The notes beneath the pieces are model-generated. The model did not search any database and had not been told where the DNA came from. It saw nothing but the letters and a program-made list of their open reading frames with translations. Of a DNA stretch of 64,000 bases, positions 4,109 through 49,326 are shown piece by piece (position 1 is the first letter of the stretch; each line of letters opens with the position of its first letter). Source of the stretch: Aeromicrobium senzhongii (lineage in GTDB: Bacteria > Actinomycetota > Actinomycetes > Propionibacteriales > Nocardioidaceae); contig NZ_CP060587.1 in assembly GCF_014334735.1 (NCBI RefSeq), positions 930,001 through 994,000 of the forward strand, given 5' to 3'. A program made the translations under genes and the position numbers.

Positions 4109-5009
4109 GCGGGAGACCGGTCGCCCCGTGCTGGACGGCGAGGACCTCGGCGAGGATGGCCACGGCCGTGTGCTCGGGCGTCGAGCCGCCGAGGTCGAGC
4201 CCGATCGGCGAGCGCAGCCGCGCGATCTCGGCGGTCGTGGCCCCCAGCTCGCGGAGCGCCTCGACCCGGCGCTCGTGCGTGGCGCGCGAGCCCATCGCGC
4301 CGACGTACCCCGCGCCGGCACGCAGTGCGGCGAGGATCGCGGGGGTGTCGTGCCCGAGGTCGTGCCCCAGGACGCAGATCGCGTCGTCGGGCGCCCAGCC
4401 CCGCTCGGCGATCCACGCGCCGGGAGGGCCGACGACGACCGCGGTCGCGTCGGGGAAGCGCTCCTTCGTCGCGAACGTGGCGCGGTGGTCCAGGACGGTC
4501 ACGGCGAAGCCGGTGCGCGCGGCCAGGGCGCCCAGTGCCACACCGAACTCGACCGCGCCGACGACGACGAGGTGGCGTGGCCGGCGCACGGAGAGCGTCA
4601 CCACCGGGTCGTCGGCGCAGCCCCGGCCGAGGGCGTCCAGCGACAGGGTCGCGTCCAACCCGGCGGCGGCGCGCTCGACCTGGTGCCAGGCCGCGTCGTC
4701 GAGCGCGGCGACGTCGCTGATGAGGACCTCGACGGTGCCCCCGCACATCAGGCCCGGCTCCAGCCAGTCGCCCACGCCGTAGCGGCGCCGTCGGGCCGGT
4801 CCGCCCGCGAGGACCTGCTCGCACTCCGCCACCAGGTCGGCCTCGACGCACCCGCCCGAGACGCTGCCGGCGACGCGACCGGTGTCGTCGACGGCCAGGG
4901 CGGCGCCGACGCCCCGCGGGGCGCTGCCGTCCACGGCGACCAGGGTGGCCACCGCGACCCGGCGGCCCTCGGCCGACCAGGCTCGAAGGGTGGTGGCGAT
5001 CTGCAGCAT
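4077..5009 (-). CDS. XdhC/CoxI-family molybdenum cofactor insertion protein
   Basis: A 310-residue XdhC-type protein. The family binds molybdenum cofactor, helps its sulfuration and inserts it into xanthine dehydrogenase. The N-terminal XdhC/CoxI signature is visible (GSAPRGVGAALAV, then GSVSGGCVE with its conserved Cys, then MCGGTVEV), followed by a C-terminal Rossmann half (residues ~170-290) ending in YVGAMGSRATHERRVEAL. The nucleotide loop reads GAVEFG, where family members usually have a GAGHV-like loop, so dinucleotide binding may be altered. It is encoded opposite the oxidase genes, overlaps the catalytic subunit by 32 nt, and has its own promoter facing the deaminase gene. Confidence 0.85.
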   Translation of the reverse strand: MLQIATTLRAWSAEGRRVAVATLVAVDGSAPRGVGAALAVDDTGRVAGSVSGGCVEADLVAECEQVLAGGPARRRRYGVGDWLEPGLMCGGTVEVLISDVAALDDAAWHQVERAAAGLDATLSLDALGRGCADDPVVTLSVRRPRHLVVVGAVEFGVALGALAARTGFAVTVLDHRATFATKERFPDATAVVVGPPGAWIAERGWAPDDAICVLGHDLGHDTPAILAALRAGAGYVGAMGSRATHERRVEALRELGATTAEIARLRSPIGLDLGGSTPEHTAVAILAEVLAVQHGATGLPLSRTGGPLHR

Positions 5010-5015
5010 GGGGCG

Positions 5016-5021
5016 ACACTA
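5016..5021 (-). promoter_or_regulatory. -10 box of the xdhC-like gene (leaderless)
   Basis: On the minus strand TAGTGT lies 6 nt before the ATG at 5009, so the transcript would begin at or very near the start codon. The inverted pair GTGTTTC (5030-5036) / GAAACAC (5065-5071) in the same divergent spacer could be an operator. Confidence 0.5.
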
Positions 5022-5114
5022 AGAGACGCGTGTTTCATGCGGGGGACGGCGACGAAACGGACAGGAAACACCCGCTTGCGACGATGACCGTCCGCCCCGT
5101 CCCGAAGGAGCTCC

Positions 5115-5591
5115 ATGACGCGACAGCACGACATCCGGTGGTTGGGGACGGCGATCGACCTCGCCGTCGAGAACGTCGACGCCGGCGGCGGGCCCTTCGC
5201 CGCCCTGGTCGTCCGCGGGGACGAGCTGATCGCGACGGGCCGGAACCGGGTCACCCCGGACGTCGACCCCAGCGCCCACGCCGAGGTGGTCGCGATCCGT
5301 GCCGCGTGCCGCGAGATCGGCGATTTCTCGCTGGCAGGACTGACCTTGTACACGTCGTGCGAGCCGTGTCCGATGTGCCTGGCGACCTCGCTGTGGGCCC
5401 GGGTCGACCGGGTCGTCTACGCCGCCGACCGTGACGACGCGGCGCGCGGCGGCTTCGACGATCGCGAGTTCTACGACCTGTTCGCCCGGGATCGGTCGAC
5501 GTGGCCGACGGCGGTGGTGGAGGCCCGTCCGGCCGACGCCGAGCGACCGTTCACCACGTGGCTGTCCAAGGCCGACCGCGTCCCTTACTGA
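5115..5591 (+). CDS. Nucleoside/guanine deaminase-like zinc enzyme
   Basis: A 158-residue cytidine-deaminase-superfamily protein. Zinc ligands and catalytic residues are present: H55-A56-E57 (general acid/base Glu) and PCPMC with C85 and C88. Size and the C-terminal aromatic/Tyr tail (KADRVPY) fit guanine deaminase (GuaD) more than the tRNA adenosine deaminase TadA, but the two are hard to separate by eye. Guanine deamination yields xanthine, the substrate of xanthine dehydrogenase, which fits the neighbouring oxidase. ATG at 5115 follows an AAGGAG ribosome site (5104-5109). The 105-nt spacer to the divergent xdhC gene must hold both promoters. Confidence 0.8.
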   Translation: MTRQHDIRWLGTAIDLAVENVDAGGGPFAALVVRGDELIATGRNRVTPDVDPSAHAEVVAIRAACREIGDFSLAGLTLYTSCEPCPMCLATSLWARVDRVVYAADRDDAARGGFDDREFYDLFARDRSTWPTAVVEARPADAERPFTTWLSKADRVPY

Positions 5592-5599
5592 CCGCCGAG

Positions 5600-5655
5600 G
5601 ATTAACGCCCACGTAATCGGCTGCGTCGAGACGTGAAACGAACCGCTCATAGCGT
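5600..5655 (+). promoter_or_regulatory. Promoter/operator region of the ABC importer operon
   Basis: An inverted repeat GATTA-N9-TAATC (5600-5618) lies upstream of a TAGCGT -10 candidate (5650-5655). A transcript from it would carry a leader of about 60 nt before the ATG at 5722. The assignment rests on motif appearance only. Confidence 0.35.
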
Positions 5656-5721
5656 CACGGCCTGACACGGGGGTTTCGTCGCAGCGGTCGAACAGGTCGC
5701 TCGGACTAGGGAGTTCACACC

Positions 5722-6783
5722 ATGAAGATGTCGTTCCGTCGAGGTCATGGCGCGCGGTGGGCCGTCGCGCTGTCGGCCGCAGCACTCACTCTGGCCGCGT
5801 GCGGCTCCGACTCCGAGGACTCGGGTTCGGGTTCGGGTGGAGAGGCCGACTTCGGCGCGCTGACCGTGCAGCTGTCGTGGGTCAAGAACGCCGAGTTCGC
5901 GGGTGAGTTCATGGCCGACTCCAAGGGCTACTTCGCCGACGCCGGCTTCTCCAGCGTGAAGCTCAACGCCGGCCCGGGCGCGACCGAGAACCTGGTGGCG
6001 TCGGGCAAGGCCGACTTCGGCCTGACGAACGCCGTGACCGCCGCCCAGGTGATCACGCAGGAGGACGCGCCGCTGAAGATCATCGGCACGACCTACCAGA
6101 AGAACCCCTTCACGATCCTGTCGCGCAAGGACACGGGCAACATCGCGACCCCCGCCGACCTCAAGGGCAAGAAGATCGGCGTGCAGGCCGGCGGCAACGA
6201 GATCCTGTTCAAGGCGCTGCTGTCCGCGAACGACATCAAGGAGGACGAGGTCACGATCGTCCCCGTCGAGTACGACCCGGCGCCGCTGGTCAACAAGGAG
6301 GTCGACGGGTTCGTCGCGTACCTGACCAACGAGTCGATTCTGGTCGCGTCGCAGGGCATCGAGGTCACCAACCTGCCCTTCGCCGACAACGGGCTGCCGT
6401 TCGTCGCCGAGTCGATCATCGCGACCGACCAGACCATCGAGGAGGAGCCCGAGATGGTCAAGGCGTTCCTCGAGGCCGAGATCAAGGGCTGGAAGGACGC
6501 GTGCGCGGACCTCGAGGCCGGCGCGAAGCTCGCCGTCGACGAGTACGGCAAGGACCTCAAGCTCGAGCTGCCCAAGGAGATCGAGCAGAACACCGTGCAG
6601 TGCGAGGACCTCATCAACACCGACGAGACCGCGACGAACGGCATCTTCACGATCAGCGACGAGTTGCTGGCCGAGAACCTGAAGTCGCTGGCCGGTGCCG
6701 GCATCGACGTCGAGGCCGACGAGGTCTTCGACCTGTCGCTGCTGGACGAGCTCTACGAGGAGAAGCCCGACCTCAAGGGCTGA
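5722..6783 (+). CDS. ABC transporter substrate-binding lipoprotein, NMT1/THI5-like
   Basis: A 353-residue exported receptor. It has a basic N-terminus, a hydrophobic signal segment and a lipobox ending LAAC with C27 as the predicted lipidated residue, followed by a Ser/Gly/Asp-rich linker. The mature part resembles the NMT1/THI5-like (ThiY, SsuA/TauA-related) fold: [17 protein letters not shown] with ligand-facing Trp and Asn, KADFGLTNA, and [14 protein letters not shown]. Members bind pyrimidines, riboflavin-type molecules, alkanesulfonates or nitrate. With xanthine-dehydrogenase and deaminase genes next door, a purine or pyrimidine-like ligand is the best inference. First gene of a five-gene run to 9806. 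Confidence 0.85.
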
Positions 6784-9262: not shown

Positions 9263-9806
9263 CCGGTCGGTCGGCATCGTGCTGGCCGCGGGGGAGGGGC
9301 GCCGGTACGGCATGCCCAAGGCGCTCGCCCGAGCGTCCGACGGGAGGCCGTGGTGCGCGCGGGCGGTCGACACCCTGGTGGAGGGCGGCTGCGACGAGGT
9401 GGTCGTCGTCCTCGGGGCGATGGCCGAGACGGCACTGCACCTGGTCCCTGCGCACGCCGAGGTGGTGCTGGCACGGGACTGGGCGGACGGTCCGGCCGCG
9501 TCCCTGCGTGCCGGGCTCGCCGCGTGCGGTGCCGAGGTCGCGGTCGTGACCCTCGTGGACCTCCCGGATCTGACACCTCGGTCCGTGGCGCGCCTACTGG
9601 CAGGAGCGGACGTCACGACGGTCGCCCGGGCGACCTACGGCGGACGGCCCGGCCATCCCGTGGTGATCGGCCGGCAGCACTGGCCGGTGTTCACCGACGA
9701 CCGACGGCCCGGCGAGGTGCTGGCCGCGCTGGGCGCGGCGTCGGTGGACTGCAGCGCACTCGGCGGCGGTGACGACATCGACCACCGCCCCCGAGATTTG
9801 CTCTGA
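9255..9806 (+). CDS. MobA/MocA-like nucleotidyltransferase (molybdenum cofactor modification)
   Basis: A 183-residue GT-A-fold nucleotidyltransferase. The N-terminal signature LAAGEGRRYGMPKAL is the CTP/GTP-binding loop with the catalytic Lys, and TLVDLPDL holds the metal-binding Asp. MocA and MobA add CMP or GMP to molybdopterin; next to a molybdenum hydroxylase and xdhC, a cytidylyltransferase (MocA-like) role is most likely. GTG at 9255 overlaps the permease stop by 8 nt; upstream in-frame codons lie inside the permease. The final codons and the TGA (9804-9806) lie inside repeat A1, so insertion of the repeat apparently set the present C-terminus (PRDLL). Confidence 0.75.
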   Translation: MPDRSVGIVLAAGEGRRYGMPKALARASDGRPWCARAVDTLVEGGCDEVVVVLGAMAETALHLVPAHAEVVLARDWADGPAASLRAGLAACGAEVAVVTLVDLPDLTPRSVARLLAGADVTTVARATYGGRPGHPVVIGRQHWPVFTDDRRPGEVLAALGAASVDCSALGGGDDIDHRPRDLL

Positions 9807-9856
9807 GTCTCACCTTTCATCTCCCGCGAAAGGTGGAATGCGGAGCACATCTGGGG
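9790..9856 (+). repeat. Palindromic repeat family A, copy A1
   Basis: A 67-bp near-palindrome. Imperfect outer arms run CCCGAGATTTGCTC (9790-9803) to GAGCACATCTGGGG (9843-9856); inner arms are CACCTTTC (9811-9818) and GAAAGGTG (9828-9835). It contains the stop codon of the upstream gene and ends just before the convergent YCII gene. Same length and orientation as A2 and A3. Confidence 0.85.
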
Positions 9857-28552: not shown

Positions 28553-28619
28553 CTCGAGATTTGCCCCCGATTCCACCTTTCACCCGGGGTGAAAGGTGGA
28601 ATTCGGAGCATTTCACGGC
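28553..28619 (+). repeat. Palindromic repeat family A, copy A2
   Basis: The inner hairpin is strongest here: TTCCACCTTTCACCC (28571-28585) against GGGTGAAAGGTGGAA (28587-28601), 15 bp perfect. The outer arms (TCGAGATTTGC, GGAGCATTTCACG) have decayed. 67 bp when aligned to A1 and A3. It sits between leuS and degV; no T-run follows, so a terminator role is uncertain. Confidence 0.85.
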
Positions 28620-34436: not shown

Positions 34437-36296
<1,860 letters not shown>

Positions 36297-36321
36297 CCCG
36301 CTCCGGCCCCCGCCCCCACCC

Positions 36322-36384
36322 CCACTTTTGGAAGTGGATCCACGTTATTTCGGGCGGACATGGTGGATCCGGTTCCAAAAGTGG
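36322..36384 (+). repeat. Palindromic repeat family B, copy B1
   Basis: A 63-bp element. Outer arms CCACTTTTGGAA (36322-36333) / TTCCAAAAGTGG (36373-36384) are perfect; inner arms GGATCCAC (36336-36343) / GTGGATCC (36363-36370) are also perfect, around a 19-nt centre. It lies between lepA and the 3' end of the DUF559 gene. By hand alignment about 48 of 63 positions match copy B2 in direct orientation. Confidence 0.88.
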
Positions 36385-36405
36385 TCCCGTGGGCGCCCGC
36401 GTTCG

Positions 36406-37341
36406 CTAGCCCTTCGGGTTGCGGCTGAGTTCCTCGAGTGCCCACGGGACGAAGCGCGGCGGCGGACCGCTGTGCCCGCGTGAGACCAAGGCACGCCAGA
36501 CCCGACCGATCAGGCCGGCCGGGTGGTCCAGGTCGCTGGAGACGACCACGATCACGAGCCATCCCTCGGCCTCGAGTCCCTCGCGGCGAGCGATGTCCTT
36601 GCGCCGCTGTGCGGCACTCCGCTCGTGGTACCAGCCGTCGTACTCGAGCACGATGCGGTGCCGCGGAAGCACGAGGTCGCCGCAGCCGAGGTGCGTTCCG
36701 CGCGGATCGAAGATGTCGAGATTGACCTCGAACTCCGGTAGGCCCGCGATCGCGAGAAGCAAGCGCAGATCGGTCTCCCGGAAGGAGCGCACGCGCTCGC
36801 GCAGCAGGTCGAGGTTGGCACGAGACCGTCGCACACCGGGAAGGTGCCGCGTCCAGGCGTAGTGCGCGAAGCCCTCGGCGGTCATCTGGTCGGCGGCGAT
36901 CAGGGCATCTGCATACCGCACGATGTCGCGGTGGCTGAGCATGATGGCCGCGTCCACGAGGCAGCGATGTGCCGACAGAACGCGGACGCCGTCGATGTCC
37001 ACGGGACGCAACGGCGCCTGACGGCGGTGCAGCGTGACTGAGCGCAGGTCGCGGCGGTGCGGCGTGTTCGTCGACCAGTGCCGCAGACTCGTATCGATGT
37101 CGAGGCCGTGGAGTTGCAGCCCCGTCACGTGACTCACCGCGGCATCCCGGGGCAGGACCAGGAGGTCGGCCCGGAGCAGGAAGCGCAGGTCCCGGGACTC
37201 CTCAGCCACCGCCCACACGCCGCGACCCGGGTGGATCGCCTCGAAGCGGCGCCCTTCGAGCATCCGTCGGGTCACGCCGAGTGCGGCGGCCTCGCCGGTC
37301 GTGAACGGCCGCCCACGCAAGGACTCGGGAATCGGCCGCAC
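36406..37341 (-). CDS. DUF559-domain protein with N-terminal AbiEi-like winged helix
   Basis: A 311-residue protein. Residues ~13-46 (FTTGEAAALGVTRRMLEGRRFE then HPGRGVWAV) look like the winged-helix segment of AbiEi-type antitoxin regulators. Residues ~185-275 are a DUF559 domain, a very-short-patch-repair (Vsr)-like endonuclease fold: E189, then GDLVLP with D222, then VLEYDGWYHE with E233, D235 and H239, D249, and EGWLVIVVVSSDL. Candidate active-site acids are all present. Such genes are multi-copy in many actinobacteria, with no known role. The GTG start is at 37341. No toxin gene adjoins it. It is bracketed by repeats B1 and B2. Confidence 0.8.
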   Translation of the reverse strand: MRPIPESLRGRPFTTGEAAALGVTRRMLEGRRFEAIHPGRGVWAVAEESRDLRFLLRADLLVLPRDAAVSHVTGLQLHGLDIDTSLRHWSTNTPHRRDLRSVTLHRRQAPLRPVDIDGVRVLSAHRCLVDAAIMLSHRDIVRYADALIAADQMTAEGFAHYAWTRHLPGVRRSRANLDLLRERVRSFRETDLRLLLAIAGLPEFEVNLDIFDPRGTHLGCGDLVLPRHRIVLEYDGWYHERSAAQRRKDIARREGLEAEGWLVIVVVSSDLDHPAGLIGRVWRALVSRGHSGPPPRFVPWALEELSRNPKG

Positions 37342-37445
37342 GAACCGAGCCTCGACCGCCGAAGCTCACCGGACCAGTCCCCGCCCCGAGGCTGGGGACA
37401 GCAGCACGGTCCCGCCCGCGGGTGGGGACGAACGCGCCAGCGTGC

Positions 37446-37508
37446 CCACTTTTGGACGTCATTTCACCTTATCCCGGACGGAATACGTGGATCGGCTTCC
37501 AAAAGTGG
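37446..37508 (+). repeat. Palindromic repeat family B, copy B2
   Basis: A 63-bp core whose outer arms extend to 14 perfect bases: GTGCCCACTTTTGG (37442-37455) / CCAAAAGTGGGCAC (37499-37512). The interior shares TTAT.CCGG.CGGA and CGTGGATC-type blocks with B1. It lies 100 nt upstream of the DUF559 start and ~100 nt upstream of the divergent phytase-like gene. No other feature was recognised in the 269-nt spacer 37342-37610. Confidence 0.88.
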
Positions 37509-37610
37509 GCACGGGGTCGGCGGAAGGCGGGCGCGCGCGGTGGGCGAGCGTTCACGCACGCTTCACCTGGATCTTGTTCCACGGTTCGCCCGGTCCGATT
37601 GCCTCGGACC

Positions 37611-39845
37611 ATGACTCACATCGGGGGACGAGCAGCCCGCAGCCTGCTCGCACTGACCACGACCGGCGCGCTCCTGGCCGGTACCGCCGCCGCGGCCCAG
37701 GCCGCACCGGAGCCGCGACCGACGCAGCGCACGACCACCGTTCCCACGCTGGTCGCCCGCGCGACGCTGTCGGCCGACCACCTGGCTCCCGGCCCGCCGT
37801 CGGGCGCCAAGGCCACGGCGGCCAACGGCCGCACCGGCCCGTTCGATGGCCAGGTCGTCCCGGGTTTCTCGGCGATGATCGAGAACCGCGACGGCACGTT
37901 CTGGGCGCTGCCGGACAACGGCTTCGGGTCGAAGGCGAACTCGGCGGACTTCCTGCTGCGGATCTACCGGATCACGCCGCAGTGGGAGACCGTGCGGGGA
38001 GGGCCCGGCCGGATCCGGCTCGACCGGTTCGTGTCCCTGCGTGACCCGCACCGCCGGGCGGGCTTCCCGATCGTCAACGAGGACACGAGGGAGCGCCTGC
38101 TGACGGGAGCCGACTTCGACGTGGAGTCGATCGTCCGGGCGAAGGACGGCACGTTCTGGATCGGGGAGGAGTTCGGTCCGTTCCTGCTGCACGTCGACGC
38201 GACCGGCGTGCTGCTCGAGCCTCCGGTGCCGCTGCCGGGCGTGCAGTCCCCGTCGCACCCGACTCCCGCCGGCGCAGCGAACCTGCCGAACAGCAAGGGG
38301 TTCGAGGCGATGGCCGCCAGCGCCGACGGCCGCTACCTGTACCCGATCCTCGAGGGGGCCCGGACCGACGACGCGCAGCCCAGGCGGCGCTGGATCCACG
38401 AGTTCGACACGCGCGCGAAGCGTTACACCCCGCGTCGGTGGGCCTACGAGTCCGACACGGACGCCTCCCTGGTCGCGGACGCCTTCACGGTCGGCCGTCA
38501 CGAGCTGCTGGTCGCGGAGCGTGACGACTTCGAGGGGGAGCAGGCGGTCGTCAAGCGGGTGTACCGGGTCGACCTGGACCGCCGCGACCGCGACGGCTTC
38601 GTCCAGAAGGAGCTCGTGCTCGACGCGCTGAAGATCGCCAACCCCGCGCGGATCGGCGCGGGTGACGGGTACGGCACGGGCGATCCGTTCTCGCTACCCG
38701 TGCAGTCCTTCGAGACGATCGTGCAGCTGCGCGACGGGCGGCTGTTGATCGGGAACGACAACAACTTCCCCGGGAACGACGCCCGCGTCCCCGGCGAGCC
38801 CGACGACACCGAGATCGCGGTGGTCGAGCTGAGGCGCCAGCGGGTGTCCGCGAACGGTGCGCTGGTGGTCGCCCACCGCGGGGCCTCCGGGCATCGGCCG
38901 GAGCACACGCTGGCCTCCTACGCCGAGGCGATCCGCCAGTGCGCCGACCACATCGAGCCGGACCTGGTCTCGACGAAGGACGGCGTCCTGGTGGCGCGGC
39001 ACGAGAACGAGATCGGCGGCACCACGGACGTCGCCGCGCGGGCCGAGTTCGCCGGCCGGCGCACGACCCGGACGATCGACGGGAGGGCGATCACCGGCTG
39101 GTTCACCGAGGACTTCACCCTGGCCGAGTTGCGGACGCTGCGCGCGAAGGAGCGCATTCCGGCCCTGCGCCCCGCCAACACGGCCTTCGACGGGCTGTAC
39201 CCGGTGCCGACCCTGGACGAGGTGCTCGACCTCGCCCGTCGCTCGCGCACCTGCGACGGCCGGCCGGTGGGGGTCTATCCCGAGACGAAGCACCCGACGT
39301 ACTTCGACTCGATCGGCCTCTCGCTCGAGGAGCCGCTGGTCGAAGGGCTGCGCCGCGCCGGGCTGGACCGGCCCGGCGCCCGGATCGTGCTGCAGAGCTT
39401 CGAGACGCAGAACCTGCGCGAGCTCGACCGGCGGAGCCGGGCCCGCATCGTCCAGCTCGTCGACTGCGCGGGCGCGCCGTACGACCTCGTGGCCGCCGGG
39501 GACCCGCGCACCTATGCCGACCTCGTCAGCCGGAAGGGCCTGCGGGCGATCAGCCGGTACGCCGACGGTGTCGGGCTGTGCAAGGACCGCATGATCCCGC
39601 GCACCGCCGACGGTCGGCTGGGCCGGCCGACGCGGGCGATCACCGATGCGCACGCGGCGGGGCTGACGGTGCACGGGTGGACGTTCCGCCGGGAGAACCA
39701 GTTCCTGCCCGTGGAGTTCCGCCGTGGCGCCGATCCGGCCGGGATCGGTGATCTGGCGGGGGAGATCCGAGCCTTCCTCGCGGTGGGGATGGACGGGTTC
39801 TTCACCGACAACCCGGGGGCGGGGGCCGCGGCCGTCGCGCGCTGA
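37611..39845 (+). CDS. Secreted phytase-like esterase fused to a glycerophosphodiester phosphodiesterase
   Basis: A 744-residue exported protein. Signal peptide of ~35 residues with an AQA cleavage site. Residues ~55-410 match the esterase-like-of-phytase beta-propeller family (DNGFGSKANSADFLLRIYRI, FWIGEEFGPFLLHVD, RWAYESDTDASLVADAF). Residues ~418-744 are a GDPD barrel: VVAHRGASGHRPEHTLASY with the catalytic His, IEPDLVSTKDGVLVARHE with metal-binding Glu/Asp and second His, and FFTDNPG at the end. GDPD cleaves glycerophosphodiesters to glycerol-3-phosphate; such secreted fusions probably scavenge phosphate from lipids or teichoic acids. Stands alone, with no Pho-box I could identify. Confidence 0.88.
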   Translation: MTHIGGRAARSLLALTTTGALLAGTAAAAQAAPEPRPTQRTTTVPTLVARATLSADHLAPGPPSGAKATAANGRTGPFDGQVVPGFSAMIENRDGTFWALPDNGFGSKANSADFLLRIYRITPQWETVRGGPGRIRLDRFVSLRDPHRRAGFPIVNEDTRERLLTGADFDVESIVRAKDGTFWIGEEFGPFLLHVDATGVLLEPPVPLPGVQSPSHPTPAGAANLPNSKGFEAMAASADGRYLYPILEGARTDDAQPRRRWIHEFDTRAKRYTPRRWAYESDTDASLVADAFTVGRHELLVAERDDFEGEQAVVKRVYRVDLDRRDRDGFVQKELVLDALKIANPARIGAGDGYGTGDPFSLPVQSFETIVQLRDGRLLIGNDNNFPGNDARVPGEPDDTEIAVVELRRQRVSANGALVVAHRGASGHRPEHTLASYAEAIRQCADHIEPDLVSTKDGVLVARHENEIGGTTDVAARAEFAGRRTTRTIDGRAITGWFTEDFTLAELRTLRAKERIPALRPANTAFDGLYPVPTLDEVLDLARRSRTCDGRPVGVYPETKHPTYFDSIGLSLEEPLVEGLRRAGLDRPGARIVLQSFETQNLRELDRRSRARIVQLVDCAGAPYDLVAAGDPRTYADLVSRKGLRAISRYADGVGLCKDRMIPRTADGRLGRPTRAITDAHAAGLTVHGWTFRRENQFLPVEFRRGADPAGIGDLAGEIRAFLAVGMDGFFTDNPGAGAAAVAR

Positions 39846-49259: not shown

Positions 49260-49326
49260 CCCGAGATTTGCTCCCAAACTGACCTTTCAGAGCTCCTGAA
49301 AGGTCAGTTGCGGAGCAAATCTCGGG
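49260..49326 (+). repeat. Palindromic repeat family A, copy A3 (best preserved)
   Basis: 67 bp with two nested perfect stems. Outer: CCCGAGATTTGCTCC (49260-49274) / GGAGCAAATCTCGGG (49312-49326), 15 bp. Inner: AACTGACCTTTCAG (49277-49290) / CTGAAAGGTCAGTT (49296-49309), 14 bp, 5-nt loop. It lies between dnaJ and the HIT gene, ending 19 nt before the HIT start and just upstream of its -10 box. Confidence 0.92.

What the first reader, a model, noticed from the sequence alone, without database searches (positions are those of the whole stretch)
36322..37512. DUF559 endonuclease-like gene bracketed by two copies of a 63-bp palindromic element
The sequence shows two 63-bp elements (36322-36384, 37446-37508), each with perfect outer arms CCACTTTTGG/CCAAAAGTGG and partial internal symmetry. 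Hand alignment gives about 48/63 matches in direct orientation (about 43/63 if one is inverted). One lies 21 nt past the stop of the gene and the other 100 nt before its start. A gene flanked by small palindromes is the layout of REP elements around RAYT transposases, but this gene encodes a Vsr-like DUF559 domain with all candidate catalytic acids (E189, D222, E233, D235, H239) and an AbiEi-like winged helix. Hypothesis: DUF559 proteins recognise or mobilise these palindromes, forming a REP/RAYT-like selfish system with a different nuclease. Alternatives: the repeats are terminators, or ordinary REPs that happen to flank the gene.
Basis: partly seen in the sequence, partly recalled or inferred. 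Interest (0 to 1): 0.78.

Follow-up and report, generated by a model that had tools for sequence, protein, structure and literature searches.

The report
Nuclease genes bracketed by cognate palindromes
In the soil bacterium of this window and its relatives, genes for a little-studied DNA-cutting type of enzyme are bracketed by matching pairs of roughly 60-letter mirror-image DNA sequences that are also scattered through the genome, much like a known partnership run by an unrelated enzyme.

Summary
The window lies in an Aeromicrobium-type genome (G000). It has three DUF559 paralogs (A, the one in the window; B; C), and each is bracketed by its own family of ~63-bp palindromic dyads. Exact copies, bracketing ones included, number 9 (A) and 21 (B). 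In 46 DUF559 genes (43 fetched plus 3 own), upstream and downstream flanks match each other above the 95th percentile of mismatched pairs in 43. In a six-genome clade, families A, B and D number 7-22 exact copies where the cognate gene is present (9 cells) and 0-4 where it is absent (9 cells). The D distribution was predicted before the search. One A element sits in frame in a gene linker, where some genomes carry the family of their own nuclease. The protein is predicted to be an AbiEi-antitoxin-like half plus a Vsr/I-Bth0305I (homing-nuclease) half. No RAYT-type (Y1) transposase was found in 49 genomes. Best reading: a REP/RAYT-like system run by an unrelated nuclease on a double-stranded dyad. 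The cognate pairing is firm. Binding, cutting and dispersal by the protein are inferred.

The parts
36322..36384 (.). family-A 63-bp palindromic dyad, downstream copy (21 nt after the stop of the nuclease gene)
   Evidence: orthologous copy in G005
36406..37341 (-). DUF559 / AbiEi-Vsr-like nuclease gene A (311 aa, GTG start)
   Evidence: orthologs beside lepA in G005, G009, G003
36472..36786 (-). C-terminal Vsr / I-Bth0305I-like nuclease domain (residues 186-290)
36799..37341 (-). N-terminal AbiEi-antitoxin-like part (residues 1-181), presumed DNA-recognition module
37446..37508 (.). family-A 63-bp palindromic dyad, upstream copy (104 nt before the start codon)
9792..9854 (.). degenerate dispersed copy of family B (cognate to paralog B at G000:C1:1030890-1031747)
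   Evidence: seen as a weak hit of the A profile with B-type arms; 20 of 31 self-pairs
28555..28617 (.). degenerate dispersed copy of family B
   Evidence: 25 of 31 self-pairs
49262..49324 (.). exact dispersed copy of family B
   Evidence: G000:C1:979262-979324; 27 of 31 self-pairs

Best explanation
Each DUF559 gene of this family and the two palindromic dyads that bracket it form one cognate unit. The protein is an AbiEi-type DNA-binding module fused to a Vsr/EDxHD-type nuclease. Two subunits bind the two inverted ~22-bp half-sites (outer box about 1-12, inner box about 16-22) of the family's own dyad, which has a fixed 19-bp centre in family A, and place the nuclease on or next to it. Nicking or cutting there, followed by host repair, copies or re-inserts the short dyad at other permissive sites, mostly just after stop codons. 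Solo copies therefore build up only in genomes that carry the cognate gene, while the gene itself stays put and is inherited vertically. Shown: bracketing, one family per paralog, dispersal, co-occurrence, fixed length within a family, predicted protein architecture. Inferred: binding by the AbiEi-like part, cutting by the Vsr-like part, and dispersal through repair.
For: Three of three paralogs in this genome are bracketed by three different families. In 46 genes the UP-DN similarity exceeds the 95th percentile of mismatched pairs in 43. Palindromes scoring at least 20 lie upstream of 26, downstream of 32 and on both sides of 21 of 43 genes, against 0.0082 expected per 200-bp window. In a six-genome clade, families A, B and D have 7-22 exact copies with the gene and 0-4 without it. 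The D prediction was recorded before it was tested (G003 12, G014 7, G045 1, other 46 genomes 0). In an AtuA linker, 6 of 29 parsed linkers (20 of the 29 with DUF559 flanks of the same genome at hand) carry an element of the genome's own family. Predicted structure has pLDDT 93.8: residues 186-290 match homing nuclease I-Bth0305I and Vsr, residues 1-181 match AbiEi. AbiEi and Rv2827c bind pairs of 23-bp inverted repeats 3 and 13 bp apart (PMC7319586, passages). No Y1_Tnp match at E 0.001 in 49 genomes, although the search rings in 5 of 14 control genomes.
Against: No binding or cutting has been measured. Copy numbers are low (7-22). Eight of nine A sites of G000 seem still present in G005, so movement is slow. 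The four presence/absence differences between G000 and G005 have ragged edges and no target-site duplication that I could see, and the AtuA linkers without an element differ in sequence beyond the element. 23 of 29 parsed AtuA linkers have no element matched to their own genome's nuclease. Pair covariation at variable stem positions is strong in A (z 8.8), modest in B (2.8) and absent in D (-1.9). In 3 of 46 genes (L067, L074, L081) no matching pair was found; in the class-wide sample 10 of 16 gave none. The clade genomes are related, so gene and elements could share descent without cause.
Confidence: 0.55

Rival explanations
1. The dyads are operators: an AbiEi-like autoregulator binds its own upstream dyad and a small regulon of dispersed sites, maintained by selection for gene control; the nuclease half does something else.
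For: AbiEi proteins repress their own promoters through 23-bp inverted repeats (PMC7319586, passages). Where an upstream dyad was found it mostly lies about 65-145 bp before the gene match. Conserved half-sites and fixed length fit a protein-bound double-stranded site.
Against: Most genes also have a dyad close to their stop codon. Of 24 copies placed with a crude gene finder (4 of them bracketing copies; 24 of the 30 exact A and B copies known), 14 lie between convergent genes, 8 between tandem genes, 1 inside a coding region and only 1 in a divergent promoter gap, and that one is gene A's own upstream copy. An in-frame element in an AtuA linker is not an operator position.
Confidence: 0.2
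2. Homing-type element: the mobile unit is dyad-gene-dyad; the nuclease cuts solo dyads and the gene is copied in by recombination, while loss by recombination between the two dyads leaves solo scars.
Against: One A-type gene (73% identity or more) per genome was found, and beside lepA in four species, while exact copies number 9-22 in those genomes. No second site with an A gene was seen at E 1e-20.
Confidence: 0.12
3. Defence or self-marking: the dyads titrate, gate or mark host DNA for a nuclease aimed at foreign DNA.
For: AbiEi belongs to an abortive-infection type IV toxin-antitoxin family (PMC7319586 abstract; PMC3985639, listing only); PADLOC calls AbiEi.
Against: No AbiEii toxin gene directly beside it: the nearest genes are lepA and a phytase-like/GDPD gene. 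Dyad families track the gene genome by genome, which such a role does not require. Relatives are rare on mobile DNA: 2 weak partial hits in viral contigs, 3 plasmid records at 30-35% identity.
Confidence: 0.08
4. Transcription terminators or ordinary REPs that happen to flank the gene.
For: Many copies lie between convergent gene ends, where terminators would be expected.
Against: No terminator-like site in 36200-37700 and no Rfam family in the window. Outward shoulders of A and B copies are G-rich, not T-rich. Each paralog has its own family and the families follow the genes. No Y1 transposase in 49 genomes.
Confidence: 0.03

Closest known systems
REPtrons: RAYT / TnpA-REP and their REP sequences (PMC2817692, passages; PMC8266576, abstract and outline)
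   Same: Gene bracketed by two cognate palindromes; dispersed copies; repeat number follows gene presence; orthologous genes keep their genomic position.
   Different: The enzyme is not an HUH/Y1 protein but an AbiEi-Vsr-like fusion; elements are ~63 bp with fixed length within a family and two half-sites, share no common GTAG/GTGG head, and number 7-22 where REPs usually exceed 100.
EDxHD (Vsr-like) homing endonuclease I-Bth0305I (family name from paper listings)
   Different: No intron or intein seen; the N-terminal part is AbiEi-like; bracketed by dispersed palindromes.
AbiEi / Rv2827c antitoxins of type IV AbiE systems (PMC7319586, passages)
   Different: Fused to a nuclease-like domain; no AbiEii toxin partner next to it; sites dispersed and mostly at gene ends.
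Vsr very-short-patch-repair endonuclease and DUF559 proteins
   Different: N-terminal DNA-binding-like module and cognate palindromes; no link to mismatch repair tested.

Membership tests
RAYT / REPtron | bracketed gene encodes an HUH Y1 transposase (Y1_Tnp) | tested here: not met
   No Y1_Tnp among Pfam matches of the protein; 0 of 49 genus genomes have Y1_Tnp at E 0.001, while 5 of 14 control genomes ring
RAYT / REPtron | gene flanked by two copies of its own palindrome | tested here: met
   (43 of 46 by flank similarity)
RAYT / REPtron | dispersed copies whose number follows gene presence | tested here: met
   for families A, B and D in one clade; numbers lower than for REPs (PMC2817692: 37-427 perfect copies in Stenotrophomonas)
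RAYT / REPtron | conserved GT(A/G)G head beside the palindrome | tested here: not met
   B and D have no GTAG or GTGG in their arms; A has GTGG only as the edge of its own palindrome and C has GTAG inside its arm; no shared head
RAYT / REPtron | cleaves folded single-stranded repeat | not testable with these tools
   needs purified protein
EDxHD / Vsr-like homing endonuclease | Vsr-like catalytic domain with conserved acid and His residues | tested here: met
   by sequence alone only weak (3hrl E 0.037, 3r3p E 0.17)
EDxHD / Vsr-like homing endonuclease | gene inserted at the site its protein cuts, absent from the empty allele | tested here: inconclusive
   Gene A beside lepA in 4 species; junctions without the gene were not searched
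Type IV AbiE toxin-antitoxin | AbiEi-like antitoxin part | tested here: met
Type IV AbiE toxin-antitoxin | adjacent AbiEii nucleotidyltransferase toxin gene | tested here: not met
   Direct neighbours of gene A are LepA and Phytase-like/GDPD; neighbours of the other homologs were not examined
Rho-independent terminator | GC stem followed by T run | tested here: not met
   0 found in 36200-37700

The most novel reading that the evidence does not exclude
A second, independently evolved REPtron: an AbiEi-Vsr-like nuclease unrelated to any transposase recognises its own ~63-bp double-stranded dyad and spreads it through actinobacterial chromosomes, probably including Mycobacterium-type genomes, by cutting and host repair. 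Each paralog drives its own family, and elements are occasionally accepted in frame inside proteins.
Probability: 0.5. Interest if true: 0.95.

Novelty: categorically new. Interest (0 to 1): 0.88.

Why it matters
REP palindromes and their RAYT genes are the only such nuclease-palindrome partnership that I met in the papers consulted (listings and passages). A parallel built from an unrelated nuclease would show that genomes can breed short palindromes by more than one chemistry. It would also suggest a function for a very large family named only DUF559, AbiEi-family antitoxin or very-short-patch-repair endonuclease (2064 homologs of one mycobacterial-type member among 7999 candidates scored), and would give a ready set of protein-DNA pairs for reading out specificity. 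It is directly testable: several paralogs per genome, each with its own predicted site.

Tried and rejected
RAYT-served REPs: disfavoured by the absence of Y1_Tnp. Known RNA or terminator: no Rfam match in the window, no terminator-like site. RNA-level pairing: at stem pairs 11-22, G-T and A-C mismatches are equally frequent (A 21 and 20 of 684 cells, B 34 and 35 of 564), so nothing points to RNA. Cruciform or hairpin as the selected form: not consistent across families (A z 8.8, B 2.8, D -1.9), so I prefer a double-stranded dyad.

Clean empty sites: looked for between G000 and G005 and in AtuA linkers. Of eleven queries, seven sites had both alleles among the fetched stretches: four are present in one genome and absent in the other (these had been picked because they looked unshared), three are shared; the other stretches were not fetched. 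Junctions are ragged. The arm conservation of 0/168 between G000 and G005 is biased, because both copies were found with the exact-arm pattern; the site found in G000 only by that pattern, 1069830, has a changed arm in G005. The pairing of sites rests on their centres and order; flanks were checked only for the two bracketing copies, 1069830 and the AtuA site.

The wider AtuA claim, that most linkers carry the genome's own family, did not hold. 30 of 47 AtuA matches were fetched and 29 linkers parsed (G024 was not caught by my pattern). Six match an element of their own genome's DUF559 genes with scores of 43-98; the highest score to a foreign, non-clade genome among all rows was 41 (G042 to G009). 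G045 has an A-like remnant without gene A; G021 is weak (33); G001, G015, G016, G023 and G046 have palindromes that I could not assign; 9 of the 29 had no DUF559 flanks at hand.

I first counted G014's 58% protein as gene A; it is the D paralog (91% to G003's D). Genes B and D were typed only in the fetched loci of the six-genome clade and not searched with their own sequences across the genus. All copy counts are of exact-arm patterns; degenerate copies are not counted. Left out of the position analysis: 1 A copy (G045) and 5 B copies (one each of G003 and G014, and three matched on one strand only).

Paper searches on DUF559 with palindromic, with repetitive extragenic palindromic, with very short patch repair, inverted repeats or mobile element, with repeat and mycobacteri, with AbiEi, and on MTES_1575 gave no description of this pairing in the listings (open-licence library only). 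The RepRanger paper (PMC12306157) was searched for terms only; DUF559, Aeromicrobium and RAYT do not occur in its main text.

Full report
WHAT IS THERE. The window is C1:930001-994000 of a 3,134,783-bp single-contig genome, G000. Its closest named protein relative is from Aeromicrobium flavum, and most named loci encoding relatives are Aeromicrobium. The genome holds 9 copies of the A palindrome with the spacer allowed to vary from 30 to 60; all 9 are exactly 63 bp, and the reversed control pattern gives none.

A SECOND AND THIRD FAMILY. A profile of the A copies, run over the window and stretches around the A copies and the three DUF559 paralogs (A 966409-967341, B 1030890-1031747, C 2435114-2435998), uncovered a second 63-bp family, CGAGATTTGCTC...GAGCAAATCTCG. 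Copies of it bracket paralog B at L023 4833-4895 and 5830-5892, with the gene match at 4891-5748. B has 21 exact-pattern copies in the genome. Paralog C is bracketed by a third family, AGATGTGTAGCG...; its two copies are visible as an 86-nt, 80% inverted match around the gene, with further half-arms elsewhere (8 hits in all with up to 3 mismatches). So three of three paralogs carry their own palindrome family.

THE RULE IN RELATIVES. 43 loci encoding relatives were fetched and scanned for palindromes without any sequence template. With a score of at least 20 there is one within 200 bp upstream in 26 of 43, downstream in 32 of 43, both in 21 of 43. More than 700 bp away in the same loci there are 17 in 415,696 bp, or 0.0082 per 200-bp window; several of those 17 are themselves elements of the same kind. 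With the three own paralogs added, the upstream and downstream flanks of the same gene resemble each other far more than flanks of different genes: median 61.5 against 21; 43 of 46 reach the 95th percentile of mismatched pairs (29); same-locus flanks shifted by 1.5 kb have median 22.5 and maximum 37 (42 loci). L067, L074 and L081 show no pair. In a class-wide sample, 16 of the smaller PF18741 hits were fetched. Six of 16 (L215, L216, L217, L221, L222, L225) have matching flanks scoring 50 or more against a 95th percentile of 28; the other ten do not, though L218 and L219 have a strong upstream palindrome. L215, L216, L217 and L221 come from the same genus label (g10) as L219, whose protein has its closest named relatives in Mycolicibacterium and Mycobacterium; the genus was not identified directly.

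PALINDROME FAMILIES FOLLOW THEIR GENES. In 49 genus genomes, exact A copies number 9, 22, 9 and 13 in G000, G003, G005 and G009, which carry gene A (73% identity or more); 4 in G014, 1 in G045 and 0 in 43 others. B copies number 21, 13-14 and 13-15 (by strand) in G000, G005 and G045, which carry gene B (92% and 80% to ours); 1 each in G003 and G014, 0 in 44 others, including G009, whose three DUF559 genes are A, C and a distant type. The second DUF559 of G003 and the only one found in G014 (91% alike) are bracketed by a fourth family, D. I wrote down the prediction that D should be confined to these two genomes. The search then gave G003 12, G014 7, G045 1, other 46 genomes 0. Within this six-genome clade, the nine gene-present cells have 7-22 copies and the nine gene-absent cells 0-4. 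Caveats: the genomes are related; genes B and D were typed only in the clade; the patterns count exact arms only.

ANATOMY. The 57 A and 47 B copies analysed are all 63 bp, and all 20 D copies fit the same frame. The allowed spacer was 41-45 for A, 38-41 for B and 35-39 for D in the genus searches, 30-60 for A in G000. Consensus: A CCACTTTTGGAA..GGaT.CAC, B CGAGATtTGCTCC..tttcgACcTTTCA, D ACTTTTGTGACGc..TTCGgc (D two bases shorter at the edge), each mirrored, with a mostly free centre. Between paired A sites of G000 and G005, arms differ at 0/168, middle boxes at 6/140 and centres at 17/133 positions; the arm figure is biased by the search pattern. Other families differ in length parity, so length looks fixed within a family, not across families. 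Measured from the ends of the gene match, the upstream dyad mostly lies 65-145 bp before it, the downstream one from 41 bp inside the match end to about 100 bp after it, mostly under 60.

WHERE COPIES SIT. A crude codon-usage gene finder placed 24 of the 30 exact A and B copies, four of them bracketing copies: 14 between convergent genes, 8 between tandem genes, 1 in a divergent gap (gene A's own upstream copy), 1 inside a coding region. That one lies in an AtuA protein, between the AtuA domain (11-427) and a ferredoxin-like domain (475-574), read in frame as 21 codons. In 29 parsed orthologs the same linker has an A element in G000, G005 and G009, a D element in G003 and G014, and in G017 the family of that genome's own DUF559 gene (score 98 against 37 or less elsewhere). 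Of the other 23, many have no recognisable element and several have palindromes I could not assign; 9 of the 29 had no DUF559 flanks for comparison. Between G000 and G005, three A sites and one B site are present in one and absent in the other, with ragged edges; eight of nine A sites of G000 appear shared.

MECHANISM AND RANKING. The pattern repeats the main arguments used for RAYTs: bracketing, gene-repeat correlation, stable gene position with changing repeats (PMC2817692, passages). But no Y1 transposase was found in 49 genomes. I therefore rank nuclease-driven spread of a double-stranded dyad first (0.55). A regulon of operators comes next (0.2), then homing of the whole unit (0.12), defence (0.08) and terminators or ordinary REPs (0.03). 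Recognition is close to certain in my judgement; cutting and spread are inference. Repair by end joining is my guess from the ragged junctions, not a result.

NOVELTY. It works like a REPtron but fails that family's defining test, the enzyme. It contains homing-nuclease-like and AbiEi-like halves without the context of either. The paper searches listed no paper that describes it (open-licence library; listings, plus the passages named). I therefore call it categorically new, while noting that the kind of partnership has a known analogue.

Noticed in passing
L022 6875-6937 (G000:C1:2935874-2935936): A family-A element is read in frame as 21 residues in the linker of an AtuA-type protein; in other genomes of the genus the same linker holds other palindromes.
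   Followed up: yes
flanks of A and B elements, about 14 bases each side: Outward-facing shoulders are G-rich on both sides (B about GGACGGGG) in 27 A and 30 B copies; partly expected for gene ends, but it may extend the element or be a target preference.
   Followed up: partly
L146 2220-2278 and 3319-3377 (G045): Two B elements bracket a ~1-kb stretch with no match to proteins A, B or C, the spacing of a bracketed gene.
   Followed up: partly
L238 2350-2404 (G009) and L152 4075-4127 (G045): A more distant DUF559 type (32-34% to A) is accompanied by yet another palindrome type beginning GGCGGTGAGC.
   Followed up: partly
L079 31-97, 154-220, 358-422 (Nocardioides): Three closely spaced similar palindromes (CTCGA-ACCC-GTGACCCGAACG type), unlike the pair beside the local DUF559 gene.
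   Followed up: no
L016 2873-2941 and 2966-3034: Two identical 69-nt quasi-palindromic stretches 93 bases apart.
   Followed up: no
L022 5286-5348 and 6875-6937 (G000:C1:2934285 and 2935874): Two A elements about 1.5 kb apart lie on either side of a reading frame that looks like an acyl-CoA dehydrogenase (my reading, no domain search); both have counterparts in G005.
   Followed up: partly
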